Source: Catellatospora coxensis
Lineage (GTDB): Bacteria > Actinomycetota > Actinomycetes > Mycobacteriales > Micromonosporaceae
Length of the DNA stretch: 64,000 nt
Direction: 5' to 3'
Assembly: GCF_016862635.1 (NCBI RefSeq)
Contig: NZ_BONI01000002.1
Coordinates: 1 to 64,000 of the forward strand
A model generated the notes under the pieces. It searched no databases and had not been told where the DNA came from. It worked only from the letters and a program-made list of their open reading frames with translations. Each line of letters starts with the position of its first letter. Position 1 is the stretch's first letter. A program made the position numbers and the translations under genes. Positions 4,012 through 20,100 of this stretch are shown here, piece after piece.

Positions 4012-6753
4012 TCAGCCGGGGAACGGGTCGTGGTGCAGGGTCGCGGTGTGCTCGCGCAGGTGCCCGAGCTGGCGGTGCAGTTCGGCGTGCGAGTCCGGGT
4101 CGGCGGTGCGGTCCAGCGCCCGGGTCCACAGCTCGTCGAGGTGGCGGCCCAGGGTGCGGCTCTCGCCGGTGTCGCCGTGCAGCTGCAGGTAGCGCAGCCG
4201 GTGCAGGAGCAGCTGCCGGACGGCGGCGTCGCCGCACTCGGCCGCGCCCGAGGCGTCCAGGTGCGGCCACAGCGCGCCGTACGCGGCCCAGGAACGGGGG
4301 TCGTCGACGTCGGCGCGGGGCCGCGTCGCGGCGAGCACCAGGTGGGCGCGGTGCCGGTTGGCGGACAGGTCGGCGTCGGCCATCCGGGACCTGATCACCC
4401 GTTGCAGGACGGGGTGGATCAGCACGCGCGCGCCGCCGGCGTCCTGGCCGCGTACGTCGAGGCGGACCAGGGCGAGCCGGTTGACGGTCTGCAGGAGCTT
4501 GCCGCGTTTCCACCGGTCGGTGAGGGCCGGGTCGACCTCGGCGAGGGTCGCGGCGAGCGCGTCGCTGTACACGATGTGCAGGGGTATCTCCGGGGCGAGC
4601 AGCGCGCAGATCTCGATCAGGCGGTATGCCGCCGGGGTCTCCTCGCCCAGCCTGCGCAGCGAAGCGTCCCAGGTGAGCCGCAGGTCGGGTTCGAGGCGGC
4701 CGGGTTCGACGAGCAGGTCGGCCGGGGGGCGGCCGGTGTCGGCCAGCCAGCTGCCGGCCGCGGCGACGGCGATCGGCAGGTCGGCGACGGAGGCGGCCAG
4801 CTGCACGGCTTCGGAGTCGCGGATGGTGGGCAGCCGGTGGCGCAGGTGGGCGATGCTCTCCACCCGGTCGAACAGGCCGACTTCGAGCAGGTCGGCGTGT
4901 TCGGCCCAGCCGGGGTTCCGGGAGGTCACCACGACGTGCCCGGACCCGCGGGGCAGCAGGCCGACGACCGCGTCGATGTCGTCGGCGCCGTCGATGACGA
5001 TGAGCCAGTGGCGGTACATGCGACCGCGTTCGAGTGCGGCCAGCGCGGCGCGGGCGGTGCCGGCAGGGGTGGGGCGCGCCGCGACGGCCAGGTGCGGGGC
5101 GAGCGCGGCGAGCTGGGCGGTGACGTCGGCGGTGGCGTCGATCCACCAGACGAGGTCGTACGCGCCGGCGTAGCGGTGGGCGTACTCGACGGCCAGCTGG
5201 GTCTTGCCGATGCCGCCCATGCCCTGCACGGCCACCCGCGCGCCGGCGGGCAGCAGGGTCGCGTCGTCGTGGTCGCGCAGCCGGGCGCGCAGCAGGCCCA
5301 GGTCGTCGTCGCGCCCGGTGAATCCCGGGTCGCGGGGTGGCATGTGGAACATCATGGGCGGCAGGCCGGGGAAGCGCACCGGCGGATGTGACGCGTCCAG
5401 GGCGGTCGCGGCGTGGCCGAGCAGGGTGAGCAGGCCGGTGCTGGCGGCGAGGACGTCGTCGCCGGACAGGCGCACGCTGTGGGCGGCGTCGAAGGCGGGC
5501 ACGGCGGCGACGTCGGCGACGTACACGGCCAGCGGCGGGTTGGCGGCGGGGGCGCGCTCGTCGCGGGTGAGGCGGGCCAGGGCGGCGGCGTTGGCGGCCG
5601 AGATGATCGTCAGCCGCCGTCCGTGGCCGCGGGCCGGCGTGTTGCCGGGTGTCGGATCCGCGACGGTGAGCCCGGCGGCGTGGCAGAGCGAGGTGACCCA
5701 TTCGGCCCAGACCGCGTCGGTGGCGTCGTGGTGCAGGATCACCTCGGTGACGGCGGGGTCGGGGGTGCGCACGAAGCGCGCGGCGGTGCGCCGGCGCAGG
5801 CCCTCGTCCATGACCGGGGCGCCGGTGACCGCGCCGTGGGTGATGTGCGCGACCAGCTCGGAGTATGCGGCGAGCAGCGTGCCGGGCAGGCCGGGCGGGT
5901 CGGCGACGGCGGCGAGGATCTCCTCGAACGCGTACGCGGGCTGGTAGGGCACCTCGACGGCGGCCCAGTAGCGGCGGCGCTGGGCCTCGGTCATGTTCGC
6001 GGGCAGCCCGGCCATGCGGCGCATGGCGACGGTCCGCCCGGCCTGGGCCTGGGCGGGCTGGGTCGTGTCGACGTGCATCGGGACGGGCAGGATGCGGATG
6101 GACCGGTTGCGGTAGCGGGTGGAGATCTCCCGGGCCAGCACGGCCGCGCCGTTGATCGCCTGCTCGGCGAAGGTGAAGCAGCTGACCAGGGTGTCGGGCA
6201 GGTGGGCGGTGCAGATGTCGGCGAGTTCGGTCAGGCCGGTGCGGCTGTCGACCAGGACGTAGTCGTAGTGGCGGCGCATGTCCTCGCGCAGCGCGTCGAA
6301 GAACCGGCCGCCGTGGCGGCGTTCGTAAAAGTCGTCCCAGTCGAGGTCGCCGAGCTGGGTGGCGTAGTCGCGGTTCTGTCGGCCTGCCGACAGGAAGTGC
6401 ACACTGCCGCCGCCGGGAAAGGACCAGCGCAGGGGTGTCGCATAGCGCTGCACCTGGGCGTAGTGGGCGTACCAGGACGGCTCGCGGGGTTCGTCGGCGG
6501 TGGTGGCGTGGTCGAACTCGCGGATCAGGTCGATGACCCCGCCGAGCGCGGACAGCCTGCTCACGTCGAGGAACGGGTGGAAGAAGCGGTGCAGGCCCGG
6601 GGATTCGAGGTCCCAGTCGGCGGCGAGCACGCGCTTTCCGGCGGCGCCCAGGATCCAGGCCACATTGGCCACCGCCATGGTGCGCCCGGTGCCGCCCTTG
6701 AAGGAGTAGAACGTGACGATCTCACCCTGTCGCGCCTCGGCGCCGTTCTGCAC
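4012..6753 (-). CDS. KGGTGRT ATPase - TIR-like - NB-ARC protein (FxsT-type, no TPR)
   Basis: 913 residues. At residues 10-25, EIVTFYSFKGGTGRT is a deviant Walker A of the ParA/MinD-like KGG type, followed by ADWDLESPGLHRFF and a YVLVDSRTG Walker B. Residues about 335-480 (EVILHHDATDAVWAEWVTSLCHAAGLTV) resemble a degenerate TIR domain. An NB-ARC module follows with P-loop GMGGIGKTQ at about 511 and WLIVIDGADD. Proteins with this order are usually called FxSxx-COOH system TPR proteins and run to roughly 1300 residues with a TPR tail. This one stops just after the winged-helix region (LHRLRYLQLHGDTGESRTLG), so the TPR sensor is missing. GTG 6753 has AAGGAGG 7 bases upstream. Divergent from the EAD2-like gene. 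A signalling or defence role is inferred. Confidence 0.8.
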   Translation of the reverse strand: MQNGAEARQGEIVTFYSFKGGTGRTMAVANVAWILGAAGKRVLAADWDLESPGLHRFFHPFLDVSRLSALGGVIDLIREFDHATTADEPREPSWYAHYAQVQRYATPLRWSFPGGGSVHFLSAGRQNRDYATQLGDLDWDDFYERRHGGRFFDALREDMRRHYDYVLVDSRTGLTELADICTAHLPDTLVSCFTFAEQAINGAAVLAREISTRYRNRSIRILPVPMHVDTTQPAQAQAGRTVAMRRMAGLPANMTEAQRRRYWAAVEVPYQPAYAFEEILAAVADPPGLPGTLLAAYSELVAHITHGAVTGAPVMDEGLRRRTAARFVRTPDPAVTEVILHHDATDAVWAEWVTSLCHAAGLTVADPTPGNTPARGHGRRLTIISAANAAALARLTRDERAPAANPPLAVYVADVAAVPAFDAAHSVRLSGDDVLAASTGLLTLLGHAATALDASHPPVRFPGLPPMMFHMPPRDPGFTGRDDDLGLLRARLRDHDDATLLPAGARVAVQGMGGIGKTQLAVEYAHRYAGAYDLVWWIDATADVTAQLAALAPHLAVAARPTPAGTARAALAALERGRMYRHWLIVIDGADDIDAVVGLLPRGSGHVVVTSRNPGWAEHADLLEVGLFDRVESIAHLRHRLPTIRDSEAVQLAASVADLPIAVAAAGSWLADTGRPPADLLVEPGRLEPDLRLTWDASLRRLGEETPAAYRLIEICALLAPEIPLHIVYSDALAATLAEVDPALTDRWKRGKLLQTVNRLALVRLDVRGQDAGGARVLIHPVLQRVIRSRMADADLSANRHRAHLVLAATRPRADVDDPRSWAAYGALWPHLDASGAAECGDAAVRQLLLHRLRYLQLHGDTGESRTLGRHLDELWTRALDRTADPDSHAELHRQLGHLREHTATLHHDPFPG

Positions 6754-6922
6754 GGACGGCCCTCCTTGCGTGTTATATGTATCGATTAAAGCACCCCGCG
6801 CCGCCTTTTCGGCTCCTTGTCGCGACCCGCTCGACAGTCGGCAATTCACCGGTTCCGATGTTTTGCGGGGCGGGTCAGGTCGGATAGGATCCGCAGAGGG
6901 TGTCGGTTCACAGCTGAAATGA
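6754..6922. promoter_or_regulatory. divergent promoter region of two NB-ARC genes
   Basis: An AT-rich patch (TTATATGTATCGATTAAAG, 6773-6791) lies just upstream of the leftward gene's ribosome site and is the likely leftward -10 area. For the rightward gene a TAGGAT hexamer at 6885-6890 with TTGCGG at 6863-6868 is a plausible promoter. No operator palindrome was seen. Confidence 0.4.
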
Positions 6923-6928
6923 GTGCCA

Positions 6929-9900
6929 ATGGCCGAAACGGTGGGAACCCGAGGCACGCTCGAAAACCTCGTGGAGATGCTCGTACGCGTACCCGAACTC
7001 GCCGATCCGGCCGTCCGTGACCAGCTCATCGAGCAGATGCGCCTGGTGCTGCGGCGGACGTTGCGGGTCAAGCGTTTCGACGACGTGCGCCACGAGATGT
7101 CCAGCCTGGTCAACACATCCGCGGCCTGCTCCGGCGGGCTGCGGGTGCTCGCCGCGATCGTGGCCGAGCAGCATGTGGGCGACACCTCGGCCATCCACGC
7201 GGCGGTCGCCGAGCTGAGCCCCGGCCTGCTGTCCGGACCGGACCGTGACCACCTGCGCAGCCTGCTGTCGAACCTGGCCGCGAGCCAGGTCGCCGAGGCC
7301 GTCGACGGGCTCGGCGGCGCCGAGCAGCTGTACTCGATGCGCACCTGGCGCGACACTGCCGGCGCGATCAAGATCATGGAGGGTCTGCCGATCCCGGACG
7401 ACGGCGTGCCGCAGGTGCTGGCCTTCGCCAGCCGCCTGTCGGAGCTGCTCACCGGTCCGATCGCGGACGGACTGCGGACCTGGGTGGACACCGTCGCCGG
7501 CGGTCTCGGCGTGGACCTCGCGGCGCTGGTGCTGCTGCGCGGCGGGGCGGGCCCGCTGCCCGCCACCGCGGCCCCGGCGTTCACTCCCCCGTCCCCGCGC
7601 ACGCCCAGCTCGCGCCGGTCCGAGACGCGCGTGGTCGGCGGCGGGGTGCCGATCCGCAACCGTAACTTCACCGGTCGCAGCGAGCTGCTGGACCAGCTGT
7701 CCGAGGTGCTCAGCAGCGGCGCGCAGGCGGCCGTGCTGCCGCCGACCATCCACGGCCTCGGCGGGGTCGGCAAGACCCAGCTCGTCGTGGAATACCTCTA
7801 CCGCCACCTCGACGACTACGAGGTGGTGTGGTGGATCCCGGCCGAGCGCACCGCGACCGTGCTCGGGGCGCTGACCCAGCTCGCCGAGACGCTGCGGCTG
7901 ACCGTGACCGAGGACCGGCAGCAGACCGCGCGCACCGTGCTCGACGCGCTCGCCGGCCTGCGCGTGCCGTGGCTGCTCGTCTACGACAACGCCGACGACC
8001 CCGACGCGCTCAAGCCGCTGCTGCCGGCGACCGGCGGCCACGTGATCGTGACGACCCGCAACCCGGAGTGGGGCTCGGTCGGCCGGCCCATCGAGGTCAA
8101 CGTGTTCCCCCGCGAGGAGAGCATCCAGATGCTCGAGGGCCGCGGCCTGCACATGCGGCCCGGCGAGGCGAACGAGCTGGCCGAGAAGCTCGGCGACCTC
8201 CCGCTGGCGCTGGAGCAGGCCGCGCTGTGGTGCCGCTCGACCGCGATGCCGGTCAGCGAGTACATCGAGCTGCTGGACAGCCACAGCCGCACGGACCTGC
8301 TGTCGGAGTCCAAGCCGTACGGCTACCCGGTCACCGTGACCGCGTTCGTCACCCTGGCCAGCGAGACGCTGCGGGCCACCGCGCCGGCCAGCGCGCAGCT
8401 GTTCGAGCTGCTGTCGTTCCTGTCGGGTGAGCCGGTGTCGCTGAACCTGCTCAGCCGGGGCCGCTCCGCCGACGTCACCGAGCCGCTGCGCAGCACCCTC
8501 AACGACCCGGTGAAGCTCAGCCGCGTCGTGCGCGACCTCAACAACCGCGGTCTGGCCAAGGTGGACCCGGCGCAGCGCATCCAGGTGCACCGGCTGGTCC
8601 AGGACATCCTCCGGGACATCCTGCCGCCCGACCTGGCCAGGACGACGCTGCGCAACACCCAGCGGCTGCTCGCCGAGGCCAACCCCGGCGACCCCGACGA
8701 GCTCGGCGGCCTGGACGTGCAGGCGGAGCTGGGTCCGCACCTCGACCGCGCGCAGATGATCTACGGCGACGAGGAGGCGGTCCTCAAGACCGTCCTGGAC
8801 CACACCCGTTCGCTGTACATGATCGGCGACTACGAGAACAGCCTGCGGCTGGCCACCGAGGCCGCCCAGGAGTGGGCCAAGCCCACCGACGACCCGGAGC
8901 GGGGCCCGAACGGCCTGGCGACGCTGCGGGCGCGCAGCATGATGGCCAACGCGCTGCGCGTGCTCGGCAAGGCCACCGAGGCCGCCGAGCTGGCCCGCGA
9001 CACCTACGACCGGATGTGCGCCAGCCCCCGGCTCGGTGAGCTGCACGAGTTCACCCTCATCCACGCCAACCAGGTCGGCCACGACATGCGCATCTCGGGG
9101 CAGTACGGCGACGCCCTGAGTTTCGACACCGCGTCGCTGGAGCGCCACCGGCGGGTGTTCAACGCGACCGAGGCCTACACCCTGCGCGCGCAGGCCAACC
9201 TCGCCGTCGACCTGCGGATGATCGGCGACTTCCCGAAGGCGTTCGAGCAGGACCGCGACATCGCCAACCACTGGGAGGACGTCGGCGGCTCCGACCCCCG
9301 GGCCCTGGCGGCGTACATCAACCAGGCTCGCAACTACTACGGCATGGGCGCCTACCGGGCCGGTCTGGACTGGATCCAGCAGTGGCGCGAGCCGCTGGCC
9401 GAGGCGCTGGGCGCGGGCAGCAGCCAGGTGCTGCTGGCCGAGCGCACCTACGCGATCCTGCTGCGCAAGCTGGGTTACCTCGACGACGCCCGGTGGATCC
9501 TGCGGGAGCACTTCGAGCGGACCCTGTCCCGGCTCGGCGACACCCACGAGTTCACCAACGCCGCCGCGGTCAGCTACGCCAACGTGCTGCGCCAGGTCGG
9601 CGGCACGTACGAGGCGGCGCAGCTGTTCGACGAGACGATGCCGCGCTACGACGAGTATTTCGGCGTGAAGCACCCGCTGACCCTGGCCGCGAAGGTCAAC
9701 CAGGCCATCCTGGCGCGCGCCATGGGTGACCTGGATCAGGCGCGCGCCCTCAGCGAGGTCTGCTATGCCGGTTTCGGCGAGGTGCTCGGCGACCGGCATC
9801 CGTACACGCTGTGCGCGGGCGCGTCGCTGGCCAGCGATCTGGCGCTGGCCGGTGAGCATGCCGGGGCGTGCGCGCTGTCCGAGAAGATGTACGAGGTGAG

Positions 9901-10138
9901 CCAGGGGTCCGGCGGCGGCCACGAGGCCCGCGGCGGCGGCGAGCACCCCTACCTGCTGATGCGCGGCATCAACTACGCCCACGACCTGCGCGCCGTGGGC
10001 CGCACCGCGGAGGCCGACAAGTTGCGGCGCACCTCGCTGCAGGCGCTGCGTGAGGCGCTCGGCGCGACCCACCCGGAGGTGGAGGCGATCGAGCGGGACG
10101 AGCGCACCGAGGGCGACATCGAGCCGCCCCCGACCTGA
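6929..10138 (+). CDS. EAD2-like - NB-ARC - TPR signalling protein
   Basis: 1069 residues. The first ~75 (LVRVPELADPAVRDQLIEQ, then CSGGLRVLAAIVAEQ) look like effector-associated domain 2, a small adaptor that recruits a separate effector through like-like pairing. A second helical segment runs to about 200. NB-ARC follows, with P-loop GLGGVGKTQ at about 276, WLLVYDNADD near 348, HVIVTTRNP and GDLPLALEQAA. The C-terminal ~450 residues are 42-residue-type TPRs (for example HEFTNAAAVSYANVLRQVGGT, HPLTLAAKVNQAILARAMGD, HPYTLCAGASLASDLALAGE). No enzymatic effector domain is fused, so a partner must supply it. The start is uncertain: ATG 6929 or GTG 6923, neither with a good Shine-Dalgarno. Convergent with the fxs cassette. 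Confidence 0.82.
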   Translation: MAETVGTRGTLENLVEMLVRVPELADPAVRDQLIEQMRLVLRRTLRVKRFDDVRHEMSSLVNTSAACSGGLRVLAAIVAEQHVGDTSAIHAAVAELSPGLLSGPDRDHLRSLLSNLAASQVAEAVDGLGGAEQLYSMRTWRDTAGAIKIMEGLPIPDDGVPQVLAFASRLSELLTGPIADGLRTWVDTVAGGLGVDLAALVLLRGGAGPLPATAAPAFTPPSPRTPSSRRSETRVVGGGVPIRNRNFTGRSELLDQLSEVLSSGAQAAVLPPTIHGLGGVGKTQLVVEYLYRHLDDYEVVWWIPAERTATVLGALTQLAETLRLTVTEDRQQTARTVLDALAGLRVPWLLVYDNADDPDALKPLLPATGGHVIVTTRNPEWGSVGRPIEVNVFPREESIQMLEGRGLHMRPGEANELAEKLGDLPLALEQAALWCRSTAMPVSEYIELLDSHSRTDLLSESKPYGYPVTVTAFVTLASETLRATAPASAQLFELLSFLSGEPVSLNLLSRGRSADVTEPLRSTLNDPVKLSRVVRDLNNRGLAKVDPAQRIQVHRLVQDILRDILPPDLARTTLRNTQRLLAEANPGDPDELGGLDVQAELGPHLDRAQMIYGDEEAVLKTVLDHTRSLYMIGDYENSLRLATEAAQEWAKPTDDPERGPNGLATLRARSMMANALRVLGKATEAAELARDTYDRMCASPRLGELHEFTLIHANQVGHDMRISGQYGDALSFDTASLERHRRVFNATEAYTLRAQANLAVDLRMIGDFPKAFEQDRDIANHWEDVGGSDPRALAAYINQARNYYGMGAYRAGLDWIQQWREPLAEALGAGSSQVLLAERTYAILLRKLGYLDDARWILREHFERTLSRLGDTHEFTNAAAVSYANVLRQVGGTYEAAQLFDETMPRYDEYFGVKHPLTLAAKVNQAILARAMGDLDQARALSEVCYAGFGEVLGDRHPYTLCAGASLASDLALAGEHAGACALSEKMYEVSQGSGGGHEARGGGEHPYLLMRGINYAHDLRAVGRTAEADKLRRTSLQALREALGATHPEVEAIERDERTEGDIEPPPT

Positions 10139-10196: not shown

Positions 10197-11546
10197 TCAG
10201 CCCGCCACGAGCTGCCTGTTGCGGTCGAGCCACAGGCGGTGCGACTCGCTCAGCGCCTCCTCGGCCGCCGCGACCACGGCCGCGTCCAGCGGTTCGGCCA
10301 GCAGCTCGTCGGTGCGTTCCCGCAGCCCGGCGACCAGCCGCAGCCCGGTGCCGGTGAGCGCGCCGGACGCCTCCACCGCGCCCAGGCCGCGCTCGACCTG
10401 CAGGCGCGCCTCGGCGAACCGGGCACCGGCCAGGTCGGCGAGGCCGTCCTCGGCGATCAGCGCCCGCCAGGAGTCGGCGACCCCGACGAACGCGTACACG
10501 CCCTGCAGCAGCCCGGCCAGCGGCCGCGGGTCGGTGCGCCACGGGGCGAAGAAGCGCCGGGTGTCGGCGGGGTCGCTCATCGGGGTGAGGTCGAGCATGC
10601 CGCTGAGCTTCGAGTGCTGGAACTCGTGCACCATCGTGACGACCAGGTCGGCCGCCGACGACGGGCGGGTCAGCCCGAACGCGCCGAACGCGTACTTGAT
10701 CGTGGCGCTGCGCGCCGAGTGCGGGTCGGTCTGCGCCAGCGGCACCAGCACCTGCAGCCCGGCGGCCAGTTCCGCGGCGCGGCCGGGCATCCGGCGCTCC
10801 AGCATCCCCCAGGCCTGCGCGAACACGGTCTGCCAGTGGGCGACCTCGGCGTCGTCGAGCCGGTTGGCGGGCGGCGCGTGGTGGCCGTGCCGGTACGGGT
10901 CGACGTCGTCGAGCGCGACTCCGGGCGCGCCGGGCGCCGAGAGCCGGTGGACGGGCAGCCACCCGGGCACGTCCGCGACGGCTGCGCCCTGCGCCGGCAC
11001 CGGCGATGCGGACGACGCGTCCCCGCTGGGCAGCGGCTCCTCGTGCAGCGCCACGACCCGGCCGCCGGCCGCCACGGACAGCCGGCCGCCGTCGGCGACC
11101 AGCCGCGCGTCCGTGACGTCGCCGACCGTCAGCGCGCCGACGCCGGGCACGGAGACCACGCCGTCGCGGACCGGCACGGGCAGGTCGGCGGGCACGCCCG
11201 CGGCCGCGGCGGCGACGGCGGCGATGCCGCAGAGCTGCCCGAAGTCGGAGGCGGCCGCGACACCGCGCTCGGTGGCCCGCACGGTGATGCCGGTCCACGA
11301 GCCGACCAGCGGCGCGCCGAGCACCCGGGCGAACCGGCCCGGCGCGGCGCGGCGGGCCCGTTCGAGAGTGTCGGCGACGGCGTCGCGTTCGGCCGCGCTG
11401 CCCGGCCAGTTGCGCAGCAGGTGCCCGATGAGCAGCAGGTGGCGGCTGAGCTGCGCGGTCCGCAGCGCGTCGATGGCCGCCGGGCCGCCGTCACCGCGGG
11501 CCAGCGCGGCGAACTGGTCGGGATCGAACTCGTGGAAGGCAGTCAT
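10197..11546 (-). CDS. HExxH-motif protein of FxS peptide cassette
   Basis: 449 residues with a metal-site motif HEFQH at about 307-311 in VTMVHEFQHSKLSG. It matches the HExxH-containing domain that in many genomes is fused to the C-terminus of FxsB-type radical SAM proteins and is thought to act in peptide modification or cleavage. Upstream of the motif are SARSATIKYAFGAFG and a long alpha-helical N-terminal half. Here it is a separate gene whose ATG overlaps the fxsB stop by one base (TGATG), so the two are translationally coupled and probably form a complex. Whether it cleaves the FxsA leader, modifies the core, or is a structural partner is not shown by the sequence. It is the last gene of the leftward fxs cassette. 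Confidence 0.8.
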   Translation of the reverse strand: MTAFHEFDPDQFAALARGDGGPAAIDALRTAQLSRHLLLIGHLLRNWPGSAAERDAVADTLERARRAAPGRFARVLGAPLVGSWTGITVRATERGVAAASDFGQLCGIAAVAAAAAGVPADLPVPVRDGVVSVPGVGALTVGDVTDARLVADGGRLSVAAGGRVVALHEEPLPSGDASSASPVPAQGAAVADVPGWLPVHRLSAPGAPGVALDDVDPYRHGHHAPPANRLDDAEVAHWQTVFAQAWGMLERRMPGRAAELAAGLQVLVPLAQTDPHSARSATIKYAFGAFGLTRPSSAADLVVTMVHEFQHSKLSGMLDLTPMSDPADTRRFFAPWRTDPRPLAGLLQGVYAFVGVADSWRALIAEDGLADLAGARFAEARLQVERGLGAVEASGALTGTGLRLVAGLRERTDELLAEPLDAAVVAAAEEALSESHRLWLDRNRQLVAG

Positions 11547-12799
11547 CACGTCTCCGGTTGAGCGGCACGGTTCAGGTCCGCCGCGACGCGCGCGGACACG
11601 TGGTCGATGAGGCGGCGCATGTCGTCGCAGTACACCGACGGGTTGAGGAAGCCGGCGCCGGGCCGGTAGCGGTGGGCGTAGTGGCCGCCGCCGCACACCG
11701 GGCGCACCGGGCAGGCGCGGCAGGTGCTCGACAGGGCCTGCGCCCCGAGCTGGCGGGCGGCGATCCCGGCGTCGTCGAAGACCCGGTCGAGTTCGTCGTG
11801 GCGCACGTCGAGGCCGGTGGCCGCGGCGCCCGGGTAGGCGGACTTGAGCGCGTCGACCTGCTCCAGCGCGCCGTCGGACTCCACCACGAGCATGCCGGCG
11901 GGGCTCAGCCCGACCTGCTCGGAGCCGCTCGCGCCGCCCAGCAGCAGGGCCAGGATGTCGTCGAACAGCCGGATCCGGATCGGTGAGTCCCGGCCGTACC
12001 AGCGTTCGAACACCGTGATCAGCCAGTCGGCGTACGGCGTCGCCCCGGGCCGGGCGGCGGGCGGCGGCTCGCCCCAGTTGGCGTGCGGCAGCAGGAAGTC
12101 GATCATCGGTGGGTCGAACGCGGACAGCGCCTCGAAGGTGGCCACCGGGTCGGTCTCGGGCGCGACGGTGGTCAGGATCCCGGCGTACGCCGGCCGGTTC
12201 GCGGGCTCGCGCAGCAGGTCCAGGGCGCGGGCGACGGCGGTGAAGCTGCCCCGCCCCGAATGGGTGCGCCGGTGCCGGTCGTGATCGGGCTGCGCGCCGT
12301 CGACGCTGACCCCCACGCTGATCCCCAGCTCCACCAGCCGGGTGACGGTGGTCCTGGTCAGCAGCACGCCGTTGGTCTGCATACCCACCCGCACCCGGGT
12401 GGACCGCGGCATGCGGGCGTGCAGGAAGCCGACGAGGCGTTCGATGCGGTCGAGCCGGAACAGCAGCGGCTCGCCCCCGTGCAGGATCACCTGCACACGG
12501 CGCAGCCCGTGGGCGGCGGCGTGCCGGGCGAGGTTGTCGACCGCGGCCTGCCAGATCTCGTCGGCCATGACCGCCGGGCGGTCCCGCCAGCTCTGGTCGG
12601 TCGACTCGTAGACGTAGCAGTAGTCGCAGGCGAGGTTGCAGCGCTGGTGAACCTTGAGGATGAGGTCGCGGATCGGTGTGGGCCGCCAGCCGGCGGCGCG
12701 CAGCCGCTCCGGATCGAGCTCGGCGTACGGCCACGGTGCTGCCGCTCGCTGTGCCTGCCGCAGCGACGTCCTGGCGTCGCCGGCCGACAGCACGGTCAC
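11546..12799 (-). CDS. fxsB: FxsB-family radical SAM/SPASM peptide maturase
   Basis: 417 residues. The radical SAM cluster motif is CNLACDYC with C54, C58 and C61, followed by the GGEPLL glycine-rich SAM-binding strand and VGMQTNGVLL. The C-terminal SPASM part has CRACPVRPVCGGGHYAHRYR and a later Cys (PSVYCDD) that bind auxiliary iron-sulfur clusters. SVDGAQPDHDRHR is typical of peptide-modifying members. From memory, FxsB-type enzymes install three-residue cyclophane links in F-x-S motifs. GTG 12799 overlaps the fxsA stop (GTGA), and the end overlaps the HExxH gene. Precursor, maturase and HExxH protein are therefore one translational unit. The substrate is almost certainly the adjacent FxsA. 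Confidence 0.92.
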   Translation of the reverse strand: MTVLSAGDARTSLRQAQRAAAPWPYAELDPERLRAAGWRPTPIRDLILKVHQRCNLACDYCYVYESTDQSWRDRPAVMADEIWQAAVDNLARHAAAHGLRRVQVILHGGEPLLFRLDRIERLVGFLHARMPRSTRVRVGMQTNGVLLTRTTVTRLVELGISVGVSVDGAQPDHDRHRRTHSGRGSFTAVARALDLLREPANRPAYAGILTTVAPETDPVATFEALSAFDPPMIDFLLPHANWGEPPPAARPGATPYADWLITVFERWYGRDSPIRIRLFDDILALLLGGASGSEQVGLSPAGMLVVESDGALEQVDALKSAYPGAAATGLDVRHDELDRVFDDAGIAARQLGAQALSSTCRACPVRPVCGGGHYAHRYRPGAGFLNPSVYCDDMRRLIDHVSARVAADLNRAAQPET

Positions 12800-12987
12800 G
12801 AGGTGAACGACTGGAAGGCTGAGATGATGCCGTCCGGGTCGTCGAGCGCACGGATCACTCGGCGGGCCGCCCTGGCGAGGGCGTCGTCGCCGGCTTGGAT
12901 CGCATCGAGCAGGGGACGATCGGACAGATCAACCAGTGGCGACCATGCTGCGGCCGGAGGCTCCATCGTGATTTCAGCCTTCACCAT
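12796..12987 (-). CDS. fxsA: FxsA ribosomal peptide precursor, tandem F-x-S C-terminus
   Basis: A 63-residue precursor. The leader contains WSPLVDLSDRPLLDAI and ARAARRVIRALDD, typical of FxsA-type leaders that bind the radical SAM enzyme. The C-terminus is ISAFQSFTS-COOH: two adjoining F-x-S motifs, FQS and FTS. The family rule is a single F-x-S followed by two residues at the C-terminus. Here FQS is followed by three residues which themselves make a second motif. If FxsB acts on both, the product would carry two three-residue rings back to back. ATG 12987 follows GGGGAG, and GTG 12984 is an alternative. The gene is preceded by a repeat-bearing 213-base gap and overlaps fxsB. Confidence 0.88.
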   Translation of the reverse strand: MVKAEITMEPPAAAWSPLVDLSDRPLLDAIQAGDDALARAARRVIRALDDPDGIISAFQSFTS

Positions 12988-13200
12988 TTGCTCCCCATCG
13001 GGTATGCCATACGGCGACCCTCGCCGGATGACGTCTTCGGCGCCGGACTATGTGCCCGGACGACTCAAGATAGGGCTCAGGGGCAGGTCTCGGCACGTTT
13101 TTGCCACCCTGTTTGGCAAAGTTTGGCGGTACCGGTTTGGCAAAGTCTGTCGATCTTCCCCTTGCGCCGGAGGCGGCGGAATGCTGTGCTCGGCCGACGG
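12988..13200 (-). promoter_or_regulatory. fxs cassette leader with TTTGGCAAA direct repeats
   Basis: GTTTGGCAAAGT occurs exactly at 13111-13122 and 13135-13146, spaced 24 bases start to start. Each is centred on the near-palindrome TTTG-G-CAAA. A related TTTTTGCCACC lies at 13099-13109 in the opposite sense. The block is about 110-160 bases before the fxsA ATG on the coding side. Two sites about two helical turns apart suggest an activator or repressor controlling the peptide cassette separately from the upstream NB-ARC gene. Confidence 0.5.
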
Positions 13201-15996
13201 TCAGATCGGCAGCGGGTCCAGGTCACACTCGACCCGGGAGCCGCGCGCCCAGCGGGCGACGAACTCGTGCTCGCCCAGCAGGTCCTGCCAGCCGACGAGC
13301 ATCCGTTCGCGCAGGCCGTCGTCCGGTTTGCCGACGGCGATCAGGTCCAGGGCCAGGTTCGTGCCGGCGGCCAGGGTCTCCGGGTGCTCGGCCCCGCGCA
13401 CGGCGACGGCGATCTCGTACGCGGCCCGCGACGCCTTCACCGCGCCCGCCCGGTCACCGGTCAGCGACAGGTCTGTCGCATGGTTGACCGCGGCCGCGAT
13501 CGCGTACGGGTGACTCTCCCCGAGCAGCTTCTCCAGCTGCGCGGCGGCCAGCCGGCCGGTCTCGCGGGCGGCCGCCCACAACCCGCGGGCACGCTGCACC
13601 GCGGCCAGGTTCACCCGGGCCACCGCCGTCAGCGGGTGCCCGTCGGACAGCCTGCGCCGGTAGCCGTCGACGGCGTCGGTGACCAGCCGCTCGGCCCGCG
13701 AGGTGACCCCCGCGTCGCGCAGCGCGTTGGCGTAGCTGACCGTCACGCTGAGCAGGTGCGCGTCGGAGCGGTCCAGCATCTCCTGGCAGCGCAGGTACAG
13801 CTCGGCCAGCTCGTCGAGCGCCTGCGGCCAGCCCAGACGTCGCCGGGCCACCGCGGCGGTGCGGCGGGCGGCCAGCATGCCCAGGTCGCCGTCGCCGAGC
13901 AGCCGGCTGCCCAGGGGCAGGTAGCGGTCCAGCATCTCCAGCGCCCGGTCGTAGTGGCCCAGCCCGGACTGGTCCTCGGCCAGCGCGAACGCGGCCCGGA
14001 CCGTGGCGGCGGTGTCGGCGGGCTCCAGCCGCTCGAAGTCGGGCAGGTCCAGGAAGGCGGCTTCGGCGTACGCGCCCGCATGCCGCAGGCTCGCCGACAG
14101 CCGCCGCCGGCAGTCCGCGGTGCGCGCGTGCCCCGCGCCCAGCGCGCGCAGGGACCGGTCGTGGTTCTCCCGGCCGGCGGCGACGGCCTGCGCGTAGTCG
14201 CCCGCCACCAGCAGGTCGGTGGCCGTGCCCGCCACCGCGGCCAAGGTCAGTTCGTGATCGGCGCCGTGCGCCGGGCTCGCCTGCAGCCGCCGCACCACGT
14301 CCACGGCCAGCTCCCGGGCCCGCGCGTACTCCCCCAGCCCGCGCCACGCGCCGGCCAGCTCCACCTGCACCTGCAGGACCAGTTCGTGGTCCGGGCCGAG
14401 GAAGTCGGGCTGCTGCCAGACGGCCACGGCCTGGCCCGCCAGGTCCGCGGCCTTGGCCAGGTCGCCGTCGAGGACCCGGAACCGCACCTGGTCGGCGATC
14501 AAGCGCTGCGCGTCGGGGTTGCGCGACTCGACCAGCCGGGACGGCTGCAGGTGCCGGCCGATCTCGCGGTACTCCCCCGCCGCGGCTACCCCGGGTGCGC
14601 CCAGCGCTGCTCGGGCCAGGATCTCGTGGACGTGATGGCGGGCCCGCGCGTCGACGTCGGCGGGCAGCGTCGACCGCAGCGCCTGCCGGGCCAGGTGCGT
14701 CATCTCGACCTGGTGCTCGCCCAGCCGGATGAGGCCGTAGTTGGCCAGTGCCCGCAGCGCCCGGCGCAGCTCGACGCGGTTGCGCAGGGTCGTGCCCAGC
14801 GGCGAGCCGAGAGTGGTTCCGGCACGTTGCAGCAGGGCGATCGGCACCGGCGCCGGTCCGAACCAGGCGAACAGGTCGCACAGGTCCCGGTGCTCGGCGC
14901 TCAGTCCGGCCCGTGCGGCGGCCAGCGGTCTGACCACCGGATCCGACGGCGTGTACTGGTCATGCAGCGCGGCCGGGTCGATCCGGGCGGCGATGTTCAG
15001 GGCCTGCGGCAGCCGGCCCACCAGCTCGATGAAGTCGGCCAGCTGCGCGTCGGTGATGCCGGGACGCTGCCGGGAGAGGAACTCGCTGGCCTCGTCCGGC
15101 GCGAATTCGAGCACCTCGACCTCGACCATCGTGGCGTCGTACGGCAGCTCGCGGTCGGTGGTGGTCAGTATGGCGTGCCCGCCGCCGATCGGCAGCAGGT
15201 CACGGATCTCCCGCTCCTGCTCGCCGTTGACGTCGTCGAAGATCAGCAGGTGCGGCACCTCGGGCGCGCCGAGGTAGCGGCGCAGGTCCACCAGCGAGCG
15301 GTCGCCCGGGGATCCGTTGCCCAGGCCCAGCCGCGCCGCGAGCTCGGCCATGCCGGCGCGGGCCTGGTCGACGTCGGTGCAGCGCACCCACCAGACGATC
15401 GGGTAGCTCTCGCCGTAGCGGTGCGCGTACTCGGTGGCGAGTTCGGTCTTGCCGGCCCCGCCGACGCCGTGCAGCACGACCGTCGTGTGCTCATGCTGCT
15501 CGAACGCGGTGCGGATGCGGGCCAGCGCCGCCCGGCGGCCGGTGAACGAGGAGTTGCGGATCGGCAGTTGCTGCACCGGCCACGAGATGACCGCATCGGG
15601 TCGTGGGGGCTGCGGTGGAATGCCGCGCCCGGCGGGTGATCTCGGCACCGTCGTCTCCCCCGTCCGCGTCGGCCGCTGGCCGTCCTCCTGCGCGCGCGCC
15701 CAGAGTGCGTGGAACCTGCCGACCAGTTCGGCCTCGTTCCGCCGGGCGAGCGTGCGCTTGTTGAGATCGACGATAATCGACTGATACTTCGGCCACGAGA
15801 GCAGATATGCGCCACGCAGCGCCGCGCGGTAGGTCTCGTGCGAGACGTACTCCAGGGAACGGTCGCGGTTGATGCTGGTGCTGACCGTGCGGCCCGACGG
15901 GCAGCCGGCGCTCACGTACAGCTCATGCAGCGCGTCTATCAGGTCACGGAAAGGTCCCAGCGGGACCGCGTCCAAACTGGGTCTGCTGATCTGCAC
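13201..15996 (-). CDS. fxsT: HTH-like - NB-ARC - TPR protein of FxS system
   Basis: 931 residues. The N-terminal ~110 residues (FRDLIDALHELYVSAGCPSGRTVSTSIN, then YRAALRGAYLLSWPKYQSII) resemble the HTH-like domain at the head of many actinobacterial NB-ARC proteins. The NB-ARC P-loop is GVGGAGKTE at 177-185, with HLLIFDDVNG as Walker B and HAILTTTDREL. The C-terminal half is tetratricopeptide repeats (HELVLQVQVELAGAWRGLGEY, HPLTAVARVNLAAVQRARGL, HPYAIAAAVNHATDLSLTGD). This is the gene class that travels with fxsA/fxsB in FxSxx-COOH loci, and it lies 213 bases upstream of fxsA on the same strand. GTG 15996 has GGAG 7 bases upstream. Its role as sensor or regulator of the peptide system is inferred from linkage. 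Confidence 0.82.
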   Translation of the reverse strand: MQISRPSLDAVPLGPFRDLIDALHELYVSAGCPSGRTVSTSINRDRSLEYVSHETYRAALRGAYLLSWPKYQSIIVDLNKRTLARRNEAELVGRFHALWARAQEDGQRPTRTGETTVPRSPAGRGIPPQPPRPDAVISWPVQQLPIRNSSFTGRRAALARIRTAFEQHEHTTVVLHGVGGAGKTELATEYAHRYGESYPIVWWVRCTDVDQARAGMAELAARLGLGNGSPGDRSLVDLRRYLGAPEVPHLLIFDDVNGEQEREIRDLLPIGGGHAILTTTDRELPYDATMVEVEVLEFAPDEASEFLSRQRPGITDAQLADFIELVGRLPQALNIAARIDPAALHDQYTPSDPVVRPLAAARAGLSAEHRDLCDLFAWFGPAPVPIALLQRAGTTLGSPLGTTLRNRVELRRALRALANYGLIRLGEHQVEMTHLARQALRSTLPADVDARARHHVHEILARAALGAPGVAAAGEYREIGRHLQPSRLVESRNPDAQRLIADQVRFRVLDGDLAKAADLAGQAVAVWQQPDFLGPDHELVLQVQVELAGAWRGLGEYARARELAVDVVRRLQASPAHGADHELTLAAVAGTATDLLVAGDYAQAVAAGRENHDRSLRALGAGHARTADCRRRLSASLRHAGAYAEAAFLDLPDFERLEPADTAATVRAAFALAEDQSGLGHYDRALEMLDRYLPLGSRLLGDGDLGMLAARRTAAVARRRLGWPQALDELAELYLRCQEMLDRSDAHLLSVTVSYANALRDAGVTSRAERLVTDAVDGYRRRLSDGHPLTAVARVNLAAVQRARGLWAAARETGRLAAAQLEKLLGESHPYAIAAAVNHATDLSLTGDRAGAVKASRAAYEIAVAVRGAEHPETLAAGTNLALDLIAVGKPDDGLRERMLVGWQDLLGEHEFVARWARGSRVECDLDPLPI

Positions 15997-16223
15997 GTGG
16001 CGGCTCCGCGCGGATGACGGCCAGCCGAGGGTTGACGGTGGCGGAACGACTGTTGGCGGAACACGGAGACGCCATGCGGGCCCCCGGCGAGCATATCGAC
16101 GGATGACCCACCGGCGCCATCGACACGCGCCATCGTCGCGCACACCCCGCGAGCGGGTGAATCGCCTTGACAGCGTCACATTCCCGACAGTCGGCGGCGG
16201 CGGGCGGGGTGGCGCGAGGTCGA

Positions 16224-16235: not shown

Positions 16236-17099
16236 ATGGCGCGGGTGGTAGCGGTGCACGGCATTCACAACACGTACGCCAGCCGGCCGCAGCTGGCCGA
16301 CGGCTGGATCCCCGCGCTGCTGGGCGGGCTGGACAACGCCGCCCAGGCCGGCCTGGCCCCCGCCGTGGGGCTCACCGCCTCCGAAGTGGCCTGTGTGTTC
16401 TACGGCGACGTGTTCCGCCCGCCCGGCAAGCGGCTCAGCGGTGACATTCCCCCGCTGACGGCCGACGACGTCGAGGAGGGGCCCGAAACCGAGCTGCTGC
16501 TGCAGTGGTGGGCGGCGGCGGCGCGGATCGACCCCGCGGTGGTCGCACCGGACGCGCGGACCCTGGGACCGCGCGCGTCGGCCCGCAAGGCGCTGCTGGC
16601 GCTGGCCGGCGCGCGCTTCCTGACCCAGGTGTCGGAGCGCCTGCTCGTGTGGTGGCTCAAGCAGGTCACGTCCTATTTCACCGACCCGGCGGTGCGCGCC
16701 GCCGCCCGGGACCGGTTCGCCGCCGCGATCGGCGACGACACCCGGGTGGTGGTGGCCCACTCGCTGGGCTCGGTCGTGGCGTACGAGGCGCTGTGCGCCC
16801 GTCCGGGGTGGCCGGTCACCGACCTGGTGACGCTGGGTTCGCCGCTGGGGGTGCCGCACCTGGTCACGCACCGGCTCGACCCGTCGACCGGCGCCTGGCC
16901 GGGGGTCGAGCGCTGGGTGAACATCACCGACGCGGGCGACTTCGTGGCGCTGCAGCCGCTGCTGCGCACCGTGTACGGCGAGCGGGTGCGCGATGTGGAG
17001 ATCAGCAACGGGCTGGGCGCGCACCAGGTCGAGCGGTATCTGTCCGATCGGGAGACCGGCGCGGCCGTGGCCGCGGGACTGCTCGCCGGCCGCTCGTGA
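16236..17099 (+). CDS. lipase-like alpha/beta hydrolase, partner of caspase-WD40 gene
   Basis: 287 residues of an alpha/beta-hydrolase resembling PGAP1/lipase-type proteins. MARVVAVHGIHNTYA gives the oxyanion His-Gly. VVVAHSLGSVVAYEAL is the nucleophile elbow with Ser in HSLGS. VNITDAGDFVAL offers the acid, and a His follows in LGAHQVERYL. There is no signal peptide and only short hydrophobic segments, so it is probably cytoplasmic. The ATG appears to be leaderless (TAGGTT 6 bases upstream). It ends 20 bases before the caspase-NTPase-WD40 gene, which has its own strong ribosome site, so the two form an operon. Lipase-like hydrolases are known effectors of NLR-type defence proteins. A membrane-attacking or lipid-signalling effector role is my inference. 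Confidence 0.75.
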   Translation: MARVVAVHGIHNTYASRPQLADGWIPALLGGLDNAAQAGLAPAVGLTASEVACVFYGDVFRPPGKRLSGDIPPLTADDVEEGPETELLLQWWAAAARIDPAVVAPDARTLGPRASARKALLALAGARFLTQVSERLLVWWLKQVTSYFTDPAVRAAARDRFAAAIGDDTRVVVAHSLGSVVAYEALCARPGWPVTDLVTLGSPLGVPHLVTHRLDPSTGAWPGVERWVNITDAGDFVALQPLLRTVYGERVRDVEISNGLGAHQVERYLSDRETGAAVAAGLLAGRS

Positions 17100-17119
17100 C
17101 CGGGCAGGAGGGCGGTCCG

Positions 17120-20100
17120 GTGGCGCGGCGGTACTTCATCGGCGCGGCGACGACCGTGTACGCCCCGGCGACCGAGCTGGTGGACCTGCCCGAACTCGTC
17201 GACGAGCTGCGCCGGGCCACCGAGCTGTTCACCGGCCTGGGCTACGAGGTGGTGCCGGACTTCGGCACGGACCTGAGCGCGGTCGCGTTCACCGGCCGGC
17301 TGCGCGCCTTCCTGCGCAGTCCCGAGCGCCTGCCCGACGACATGATCGCGGTGTACTACACGGGGCACGGCGAGGTGGCCGGGTCCGGGACGGAGCTGCT
17401 GCTGCCGATGGCCGACGCGACGGCCGACCGCTCGTACAGCTTCCTGCACGCCGGGGACCTGACCGGACGCCTGCTCGACAGCTACGCGCCCGGCGAGATG
17501 GTCGGCCAGCGGCTGCTGTTCGTGCTGGACACCTGCTACGCGGGCGCGGCCGGTGGCACACTGGCCGCCGGGGCGGTGGGCTTCGTCGACCGGCTGCGCC
17601 GCACGGCCAGCGGGCCCGCCGTCGCGGTGATCGTGGCGGCCCGCGACTACCAGCAGGCCGGGGTCGGCACGTTCACCCAGGCGCTGGCGCGCGCCGTGCA
17701 GGAACGGGCGATCGCCGGCCACGAGGTGCCGTTCCTGCCGCTGGAGCCGCTGATCACGCAGGTGAACGCGGAGATGGCCGAGGCCGCGGCGGGCGCGGCC
17801 GTCAGCCAGCACGCCCGCCTGCTCTACTTCGGCGAGCGGGCCGGGGAGTTCTTCCCGAACCGGCTGTACAGCCAGTGGTACGCCGACCTCGACGTGCGCA
17901 CCCGGGACCTGCGGCTGCAGCAGGACGCGCGGCGGGCCGAACGGGAGCGCAGCGAGCGCATCGGGCAGGGCCTCGACCCGGCGTCCGAGCGCGACGACCT
18001 GTGGCTGTTCACCGGGCGGCACGCCGCCCTGCGCCGCGCCTCGGCCTGGCTGGCCGAAGCCGCGGGGCACCCGCCGCCACCGACCCTGGTGATCACCGGC
18101 GATCCGGGTTCGGGCAAGTCCGCGCTGCTGGCCCGGCTGGACACGCTGGCCGACCCGGGCCGCAGCGCCCGCGTGCCCGACGTGCACCTGCTGCCCCCGG
18201 ACACCATCCCGCCGCGGGAGTCGATCAGCCGGTTCATCCACGCCCGCGGCCTGACCCCGGTGGCGCTGCTCGCCGGGCTGGCCGAGGCCTGCGGCGTCGA
18301 CGACATCGCCGCGATCGACTCGCCGGGCAAGCTCGTCGCGCAGCTGCGCAGCCGGACCGCGCCGGTCACGGTCGTCATCGACGGCGTCGACGAGGCGGCC
18401 GGCGAGGCCGGCGACACCACGGTCACCGGCCTCGCGATGGTCAAGCAGGTGCTGGCCCCGCTGGTACGCGCCGCGCACCGCACGCCGCTGCGGCTGCTGA
18501 TCGGCACCCGCCGGCACCTGATCGGCCCGCTCGGCAAGCCGGTCGAAGTCGTCAACCTCGACCGGGCCCGCTACGCCGACCAGCCCAGCCTGCACGCGTA
18601 CGTGCGCTCGTGCCTGATCGAGCTGGTCGAGACGTCGCCCTACCGCAGGCAGCGGCCCGAGTACCTGGCCGCGGTCGTCGACGCCGTCGCCGCAGCCGCC
18701 GGTGACTCGTTCCTCGTCGCCCTGATCACCGCCCGCAGCCTCGCCCTGCAGGACGAGCCGGTGGCCGACCCGTACGACCCGGTCTGGCGGGCCTCGCTGC
18801 CGCGGGAGGCCGCCGGAGCGATGAGCCGCGACCTCGACGAACGGCTGGGCGCGGACGCGGCCCGAGCCCGGGACCTGCTGCTGCCGCTGGCCTACGCGCA
18901 GGCGTCCGGGCTGCCGTGGGAGGATCTGTGGCCGCGCCTGGTGACCCGGCTGACCGGCCGCCCGTGCGGCAACCGCGACCTGGACTGGCTGGTCGAGAAC
19001 GCCGGCTACTACATCATCGAGTCGCGCCTGGCCAACAGCTCCGTGTACCGCCTCTACCACGCGGCGCTGGCCGAGCACCTGCTCGCCGAGCGCCGGGCCG
19101 GCCACGGCGCGGTCCCCCACGACCTGCCCGACGACGGCGACGCCAGGGCCGACGCCGCGGCGATCACCCGGGCCGACCACCGGGCGATCTTCGACATGCT
19201 CGTCGACCGGGTGCCGCGGCGGCTCGACGGCACCCGGGACTGGGCGATGGCCCATCCGTACACCGCGGCCGCCATCACCGGCCACGCCGTGCAGGCCGAC
19301 TGCCTCGACATGCTGCTGGCCGAGCCCCGGCTGCTCACCGACACCCCGGCCGAGCCGCTGCTGACCGCGCTGCACCGGGTCCGCACCCCGCAGGCGTGGG
19401 CGACCGCGGACGCGTACCGGCGCGCGATCGGCCGCATGCAGGCCCACCCGGCCGAGCGGGCCGCCTACCTGCAGCTCGCCGCCCGGTGCGCGCGAGCCCC
19501 GCACCTGGCCGACGACATCACCGCCAGCGGCCTGCCGCTGCCCTGGACCGCGCACTGGGCGTCCTGGCGTATGCACCCGCCGCACCAGACGCTGACCTGG
19601 CACCGCGGCCCGGTCACCGCCGTCGCGCTCGGCGAGGTCGCCGGCCGGGCGGTCGTCGCGTCGGCCAGCGGCGACCGCAGGCTTCGGCTGTGGAACGCCG
19701 CGACGGGGCGGCCGCTCGGCGAGCCGCTGGCCGGCCACACCGACTGGGTCACCTCGGTCGTGTTCGGACAGGTCGACGATCAGACGGTCGTGGTGTCCGG
19801 TGGCCGGGACGGCACCGTGCGGCGCTGGGACGCGACGACGGGCCGCCCCCTGCCCGGACGGCCCAACCGCCACCGCGGGCCGGTGCGCACGGTCGCGTTC
19901 GGACGGCTCGACGGCCGCGCCGTCGTCGTGTCCGGGGGCGAGGACGACGGTGTCATGGTGTGGGACGCGGCCACCGGACAGGTCGTCGCCGGGCCGCTGG
20001 CCGGGCACGCCGGCGGGGTCTACGCCGTGGCGGTCGGGGACGTGCGCGGGCAGGGCGTCGTGGCGACGGCCGGCGCCGACGGCCTGGTGCGGCTGTGGGA

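What the first reader, a model, noticed from the sequence alone, without database searches (positions are those of the whole stretch)
12796..12987. FxsA precursor ending in two adjoining F-x-S motifs (AFQSFTS-COOH)
The known family ends F-x-S-x-x. Here the three residues after FQS form a second motif, FTS, at the very C-terminus. If the FxsB-type enzyme makes a three-residue cyclophane in each F-x-S, the product would have two fused or abutting rings and a free C-terminal Ser inside a ring motif. That would be a new variant of the class.
Basis: partly seen in the sequence, partly recalled or inferred. Interest (0 to 1): 0.85.

Follow-up and report, generated by a model that had tools for sequence, protein, structure and literature searches.

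The report
Double F-x-S motif ending an FxsA peptide
A soil bacterium encodes a small peptide that ends in two back-to-back copies of the three-residue motif which a neighbouring radical enzyme is thought to lock into a ring; relatives show that the second copy is a recurrent but optional feature of a whole group, which makes a two-ring product plausible but unproven.

Summary
In detail: window 12796-12987 (-) encodes a 63-aa FxsA-type precursor ending ...SAFQSFTS-COOH. Its stop overlaps (GTGA) an FxsB-type radical SAM/SPASM gene, which overlaps (ATGA) a HExxH hydroxylase-like gene; three genes matching the FxSxx-system TPR model lie around them. It is not a one-off. In 354 genomes of its family (Micromonosporaceae) I found 29 such loci, the window's included, in 28 genomes, each with fxsB next door. 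The first F-x-[S/N] is in 29 of 29. An aromatic follows at +3 in 23 of 29 and a full FxSFxS in 13 of 29. Four of 29 stop right after it, as here; six end FxSFxSxx-COOH. Among FxsA-like peptides from the wider class, 1 of 42 has an aromatic at +3; but 5 of 14 other family peptides also have one, none with Ser at +5. One close relative has lost the second Phe (FQSAVS); five more clade members lack it. So the second motif is favoured yet dispensable. One ring at FQS is very likely by homology; a second at FTS is a little under an even bet. The rings would abut, not fuse. A new variant of a known kind.

The parts
12796..12987 (-). fxsA-type precursor, 63 aa, ending AFQSFTS-COOH (F58-Q59-S60, F61-T62-S63)
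12799..12816 (-). tandem core codons TTC CAG TCG TTC ACC TCG, directly before the stop TGA (12796-12798)
11546..12799 (-). fxsB-type radical SAM/SPASM peptide maturase, 417 aa, CxxxCxxC from residue 54, GTG start overlapping the fxsA stop (GTGA)
   Evidence: TIGR04269, 454.3 bits, cut-off 370; ChlB 9gm3, E 1.1e-74
10197..11546 (-). separate aKG-HExxH-type peptide beta-hydroxylase-like protein, 449 aa, with HEFQH, ATG overlapping the fxsB stop (ATGA)
   Evidence: TIGR04267, 158.5 bits, cut-off 40; 22nu, 8s5f ChlH
13201..16179 (-). protein matching the FxSxx-COOH system TPR model, with NB-ARC and TPR, upstream of fxsA on the same strand (listed ORF; true start not determined)
   Evidence: (NF040586, 539.4 bits)
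6923..10138 (+). protein matching the FxSxx-COOH system TPR model, with EAD2, VMAP-M0, NB-ARC and TPR domains
   Evidence: (NF040586, 825.3 bits)
4012..6810 (-). KGGVGR/ParA-like ATPase followed by the first half of the FxSxx TPR model (positions 1-438 of 830); stretch scanned, ends of the gene not determined
   Evidence: (NF047398 138.8 bits, NF040586 415.4 bits)
13099..13146 (-). CGCCAAACTTTGCCAAAC / ACTTTGCCAAACC direct repeats before fxsA; possible operator, not tested

Best explanation
FxsA of this locus is a substrate peptide with a tandem F-x-S core. The neighbouring radical SAM/SPASM enzyme FxsB is expected to abstract a beta-hydrogen from the third residue of the motif and join that carbon to the Phe ring two residues before it, giving a three-residue cyclophane. 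The first ring (F58 to S60) is very likely. The same enzyme then most likely repeats the reaction on F61-T62-S63, giving two abutting rings that end the peptide, with Ser63 bearing both the crosslink and the free carboxylate. The HExxH enzyme probably adds one or more beta-hydroxyl groups, and the peptide acts with, or is read by, the NB-ARC/TPR proteins coded around it. Shown: the genes, their motifs, the tandem motif and its recurrence. Inferred: every chemical step, the order of steps and the biological role.
For: FxsB is over its curated cut-off and keeps CxxxCxxC. Review PMC11002830 (passages read): MscB, listed there under IPR026335, joins Phe C4 to Ser C-beta, with crosslinks at i and i+2; that IPR026335 is the FxsB family is my recollection. 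The best sequence match among solved structures is ChlB, called a 'multiple cyclophane synthase' in the title of a paper in the reference list of PMC12636437 (that paper itself not seen). Aromatic at +3 in 23 of 29 clade members against 1 of 42 in the class sample. Ser is at +5 in 15 of 29, at +4 in 0 of 29, at +6 in 4 of 24. Within the clade, Pro stands at +5 in 0 of 23 members with the second aromatic and in 4 of 6 without (lineages not independent, two of the four share one tail). FxSFxS lies in several separate branches of the FxsB tree. One member has FQNYAFQNLAS, two FQN copies. fxsB lies beside fxsA in 29 of 29, and the genome has one FxsB over the cut-off (a second, weak match of 94 bits is far below it), so one enzyme would have to make both rings.
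Against: The second motif is lost or degenerate in part of the clade: no aromatic at +3 in 6 of 29, among them the close relative FQSAVS, whose FxsB is full-length; S at +5 in only 15 of 29; tail length 3 to 8. In the 24-row alignment +5 ranks 36th and +3 22nd of 58 columns from most to least conserved, against 4th and 7th for the first F and S. An aromatic at +3 is not confined to the clade: 5 of 14 other FxsA-like peptides of the family have one, followed at +5 by Pro, Arg or Gly and never by Ser (FQNFAP, FSSYQR, FDNYAG three times), so there it must serve something other than a second F-x-S, and the missing Pro/Gly at +5 does not hold outside the clade. FxSFxS is only weakly clustered on the tree (38 of 500 shuffles as low). 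No product, mass or structure is available.
Confidence: 0.45

Rival explanations
1. One ring only, at FQS. The tail FTS is a C-terminal follower that helps binding, hydroxylation or trimming. It replaces the short pair that ends canonical FxsA (Ala or Ser, then often Leu, Ile or Val), and resembles F-x-S because an aromatic at +3 suits some pocket.
For: First F-x-[S/N] in 29 of 29, tail variable in sequence and length. FQSAVS in a close relative beside a full-length fxsB. Five of 14 other peptides of the family have an aromatic at +3 without any second F-x-S. The NCBIfam model places its F-x-S on FQS.
Against: Does not explain why Ser in the clade is concentrated at +5 exactly (15 of 29 against 0 of 29 at +4 and 4 of 24 at +6), or why six of 29 members end in FxSFxSxx-COOH.
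Confidence: 0.43
2. The second motif is the truly modified one, because it holds the canonical FxSxx-COOH place in some relatives; the first F-x-S is a recognition element.
For: F at -5 in 13 of 29, and FxSxx-COOH formed by the second motif in 6 of 29.
Against: The first motif is the invariant one; here FTS has no residues after it; AVS in one species has no aromatic to crosslink.
Confidence: 0.05
3. The tandem is a chance result of a variable tail with no role in the product.
For: Tails vary and the second aromatic is lost in some lineages; FxSFxS is only weakly clustered on the tree.
Against: 23 of 29 against 1 of 42 for an aromatic at +3 (lineages not independent), across separate branches of the FxsB tree.
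Confidence: 0.07

Closest known systems
FxSxx-COOH cyclophane RiPP system (FxsA TIGR04268, FxsB TIGR04269, FxSxx_TPR NF040586)
   Same: Same kinds of gene side by side; FxsB and the proteins matching the TPR model pass their curated cut-offs.
   Different: The precursor scores 19.1 against the cut-off of 28 and does not end F-x-S-x-x; it has a tandem F-x-S with nothing after it.
Triceptides made by MscB, OscB, XncB (three-residue cyclophanes; PMC11002830, passages read)
   Same: Aromatic-x-X3 motif; MscB makes the Phe to Ser link expected here.
   Different: No product is known here; the passages read do not mention a tandem F-x-S.
ChlB/ChlH of Chlorogloeopsis (PDB 9gm3, 8s5f)
   Same: Best match of FxsB among solved structures (E 1.1e-74). 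The HExxH protein matches ChlH weakly (E 5.2e-5) and 22nu strongly (5.1e-52). ChlB is named a multiple cyclophane synthase in a cited title.
   Different: PMC12636437 (passages read) speaks of a fused radical SAM-HExxH protein; here the two are separate overlapping genes.
Other radical SAM peptides with repeated aromatic motifs (PMC9062424, passages read)
   Same: Precursors with two Aro-x-x-Asn motifs, and with Tyr-Asn-Arg and two adjoining His-Asn-Arg units, are described there, so repeated ring motifs are a known theme.
   Different: Other motifs and enzyme clusters; products only predicted there.
Actinobacterial peptide-processing modules beside AP-ATPase conflict systems (PMC7159879, section 24 read)
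   Same: FxSxx peptide, radical SAM/SPASM, HExxH-type gene and AP-ATPase/TPR proteins, one with a MinD/ParA-like domain.
   Different: That paper treats the HExxH-type protein as a peptidase; PMC12636437 describes such proteins as hydroxylases and related oxidative enzymes.

Membership tests
FxSxx-COOH precursor, TIGR04268 | score at or over the curated cut-off (28 bits) | tested here: not met
   19.1 bits; 18.4 bits in the genome search
FxSxx-COOH precursor, TIGR04268 | C-terminus F-x-S followed by exactly two residues | tested here: not met
   three residues follow FQS, none follow FTS; 6 of 29 clade members do meet it by their second motif
FxSxx-COOH precursor, TIGR04268 | encoded next to fxsB and genes matching the FxSxx-system TPR model | tested here: met
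FxsB, TIGR04269 | score over the curated cut-off; CxxxCxxC; further cysteines near the C-terminus | tested here: met
   454.3 bits against 370; CNLACDYC from residue 54 and cysteines at 360, 363, 369, 391
aKG-HExxH peptide beta-hydroxylase, TIGR04267 | score over the cut-off with an HExxH motif | tested here: met
   158.5 bits against 40; HEFQH aligned with HEFQH of 22nu and HEHRH of 8s5f
Triceptide | aromatic carbon to C-beta crosslink between residues i and i+2 | not testable with these tools
   needs product mass and NMR
Multi-ring triceptide | more than one ring per precursor made by one enzyme | not testable with these tools
   one FxsB over the cut-off in the genome; tandem motif present; product unknown

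The most novel reading that the evidence does not exclude
A clade of FxsA precursors in Micromonosporaceae carries a duplicated F-x-S unit that one FxsB closes into two directly abutting cyclophanes. In Catellatospora, and separately in one other lineage, the peptide is cut back so that the second ring closes on the C-terminal residue itself; other lineages have gone back to one ring or moved to repeated FQN units.
Probability: 0.37. Interest if true: 0.6.

Novelty: new variant of a known kind. Interest (0 to 1): 0.42.

Why it matters
What FxSxx peptides do beside NB-ARC/TPR conflict genes is an open question so far as I could see (PMC7159879 proposes a toxin or signal). A clade in which the ring motif has been doubled, truncated and lost gives a natural panel (FQSFTS, FQSAVS, FQSFTSAS, FQNYAFQNLAS and others) to ask whether FxsB works repeatedly, whether it needs residues after the motif, and how ring number relates to function. 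Two abutting strained rings ending in a free carboxylate would also be an unusual small scaffold.

Tried and rejected
Frameshift or assembly artefact: judged unlikely, because two further genomes of the genus end in the same FQSFTS with TGA and a third in FQSAVS, in a like overlap. Chance similarity: disfavoured by recurrence in the clade. 'Unique to this genome': rejected. 'Fused rings': rejected, as the two motifs share no residue.

Twelve other FxsB loci were looked at for a precursor directly upstream (L051, L053, L056, L058, L059, L060, L061, L063, L064, L072, L087, L103) and I saw none; they are not in the tallies. One search shows weak FxsA-like hits downstream in L059 (ends FGNTP) and L064 (ends FGNAP).

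Rows dropped before counts. One search used 54 of the 58 rows over the cut-off (four not fetched). Of the 54, 42 gave a core by my pattern [AG][FYH]x[SN], 3 gave none (ending FDAVL, TFDEFAPGDESGGVA and FEAVI) and 9 were over my profile's E-value limit; by eye six of those 9 end in FNSAL or FQSAL, one in GFQSVQSSLL, one in AFNSSV, and one has no FxsA-like end. The clade of 29 is all rows at E 5.8e-17 or better (next row 1.1e-10); 24 of the 29 peptides had been used to build that profile, so their recovery is by construction. The 15 other family rows are those fetched, not all weaker hits; one has no core. L188 and L189 lay under the cut-off and are not counted. The list of canonical tails typed is not relied on; one search replaces it. 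The Fisher values treat related sequences as independent and are descriptive only. Column ranks come from 24 rows, not 29.

Structure prediction was not used: a single-chain model would not show how many rings form. The papers on MscB, ChlB and the fused enzymes that I asked for are not held; I know them only as described or cited by others. Searches for this in print: (the last with FxSFxS, FxSxx, tandem cyclophane and bis-cyclophane among its terms). I saw no paper describing the tandem in their listings, but most subscription papers of the field are not held.

Full report
What is there. Window 12796-12987 on the - strand encodes a 63-aa peptide ending SAFQSFTS. Its stop overlaps by four bases (GTGA) the start of a 417-aa radical SAM/SPASM protein that passes the FxsB cut-off (TIGR04269, 454.3 bits against 370) and keeps CxxxCxxC. 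The stop of that gene overlaps (ATGA) a 449-aa protein with HEFQH, over the cut-off of the aKG-HExxH peptide beta-hydroxylase model (158.5 against 40) and alignable with the solved proteins 22nu and ChlH 8s5f. Around this three-gene unit lie three stretches that match the FxSxx-system TPR model NF040586 (13201-16179, 6923-10138 and, over its first half, 4012-6810). One has EAD2 and VMAP-M0 domains and one a ParA-like ATPase domain. This resembles what PMC7159879 describes (section 24 read) for peptide-processing modules next to AP-ATPase conflict systems.

Where it comes from. The best FxsB matches in the named genome collection are Catellatospora species (87, 84 and 80% identical) and Hamadaea bins (82 and 81%). 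Of the 11 genomes placed in the window's own genus, itself included, 4 carry a full FxsA match.

The motif in its clade. A profile search of 354 genomes of the family found 29 closely related FxsA loci, the window's included, in 28 genomes, set off from the rest by a gap in E-value (5.8e-17, then 1.1e-10). 24 of the 29 had been used to build the profile. All 29 have fxsB directly downstream, and all 29 FxsB keep CxxxCxxC. Counting from the first Phe (position 0): the first motif is F-x-S in 28 and F-x-N in 1. Position +3 is Phe in 21 and Tyr in 2. Position +5 is Ser in 15. A full FxSFxS is present in 13. Four peptides end exactly there (three of this genus, the window's included, and L021). 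Six end FxSFxSxx-COOH, and 13 of 29 have Phe at -5, the canonical place. One ends FQNYAFQNLAS, with two FQN copies. A close relative ends FQSAVS.

Comparison outside the clade. From the 394-genome class sample I fetched 54 of the 58 rows over the TIGR04268 cut-off. 42 gave a readable core; of these, 25 end with exactly two residues after it, and 1 of 42 has an aromatic at +3. Two of 42 have a second F-x-S somewhere in the tail (L122 FNSFSS..., L169 FNSSLAFTSALSAL). The clade profile found no close member in that sample apart from the window's own genome (next best 31.4 bits). In the window's own family the contrast is weaker: of 15 other FxsA-like rows fetched, 14 have a core, and 5 of these have an aromatic at +3 (FQNFAP, FSSYQR, FDNYAG three times), none with Ser at +5. 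So an aromatic at +3 is a wider trait of the family, while the full second F-x-S was seen, among the family rows fetched, only in the clade.

History. On a tree of FxsB the 29 form one side of a fully supported branch (100/100) against three canonical outgroups, with many unresolved forks inside (11 open of 29 inner branches). FxSFxS needs at least 8 changes and the lack of an aromatic 5 (that group includes the three outgroups). FxSFxS itself is only weakly clustered (38 of 500 shuffles as low), the lack of an aromatic more so (3 of 500). My reading, an inference, is that an F-x-S unit was doubled early in this group, that the trailing residues were lost in Catellatospora and separately in L021, and that the second motif decayed several times.

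Does the second motif do something? For: the aromatic at +3 (23 of 29 against 1 of 42 in the class sample); Ser concentrated at +5 (15 of 29; +4 0 of 29; +6 4 of 24); within the clade Pro at +5 in 0 of 23 with the aromatic and 4 of 6 without. Against: the natural losses, the variable tail, the rank of +5 (36th of 58 columns; +3 is 22nd, the first F and S 4th and 7th), and the family peptides with an aromatic at +3 but Pro, Arg or Gly at +5. So it is favoured but not needed for the system to persist. That fits an optional second ring, and also an aromatic follower.

Chemistry expected. PMC11002830 (passages read) reports that MscB joins Phe C4 to Ser C-beta, with crosslinks at i and i+2, and that other such enzymes crosslink Asn, Asp, Arg and Ala. 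The best match of the window's FxsB among solved structures is ChlB, which a title cited in PMC12636437 calls a multiple cyclophane synthase (that paper itself not seen). PMC12636437 also reports that the HExxH partner hydroxylates Asp and His of a peptide with a preformed cyclophane. Repeated ring motifs are described for other radical SAM peptides (PMC9062424, passages). The rings would abut and share no residue, and Ser63 would carry both the ring bond and the free carboxylate.

Verdict. The precursor should work like FxsA but falls below the TIGR04268 cut-off and does not end in FxSxx, so I do not file it as a member of that model. It belongs to a related group with a tandem core: a new variant of a known kind.

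Noticed in passing
window 13099-13146: Two exact copies of TTTGGCAAAGT upstream of fxsA (0.01 expected with up to one mismatch). On the fxsA strand they belong to CGCCAAACTTTGCCAAAC-like direct repeats 133 and 157 bases before the start; TTTGCCAAA stands at -130 to -140 in L041, L042 and L043, and looser forms are seen in L044, L046 and L052. Possible operator; a sigma-70 scan of 12900-13250 found nothing.
   Followed up: partly
window 16505-22390: Weak match to a caspase domain of the EACC1-associated type (46.5 bits, under its cut-off of 140) followed by a long WD40 array, beside an alpha/beta-hydrolase-like gene 16236-17099 (17.3 bits, under its cut-off).
   Followed up: no
window 23015-25663: A further AAA/NB-ARC-like protein with TPR repeats.
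   Followed up: no
window 4012-6810 and 11546-12799: In PADLOC-DB the ParA-like stretch matches PDC-M28B (79 bits) and FxsB matches viperin models weakly (44.3 bits), the latter probably through the shared radical SAM domain.
   Followed up: no
L017 (G076), FxsA C-terminus: FQNYAFQNLAS: two FQN copies with a Tyr between them, a possible three-aromatic core.
   Followed up: partly
L122 (G651) and L169 (G514): FxsA-like peptides outside the family with a second F-x-S (FNSFSSD..., FNSSLAFTSALSAL), perhaps separate origins of multi-motif cores.
   Followed up: no
L174, L176, L179: Another kind of FxsA-like peptide in the same family has AFDNYAGDP..., with FDN in place of F-x-S and a Tyr at +3.
   Followed up: partly
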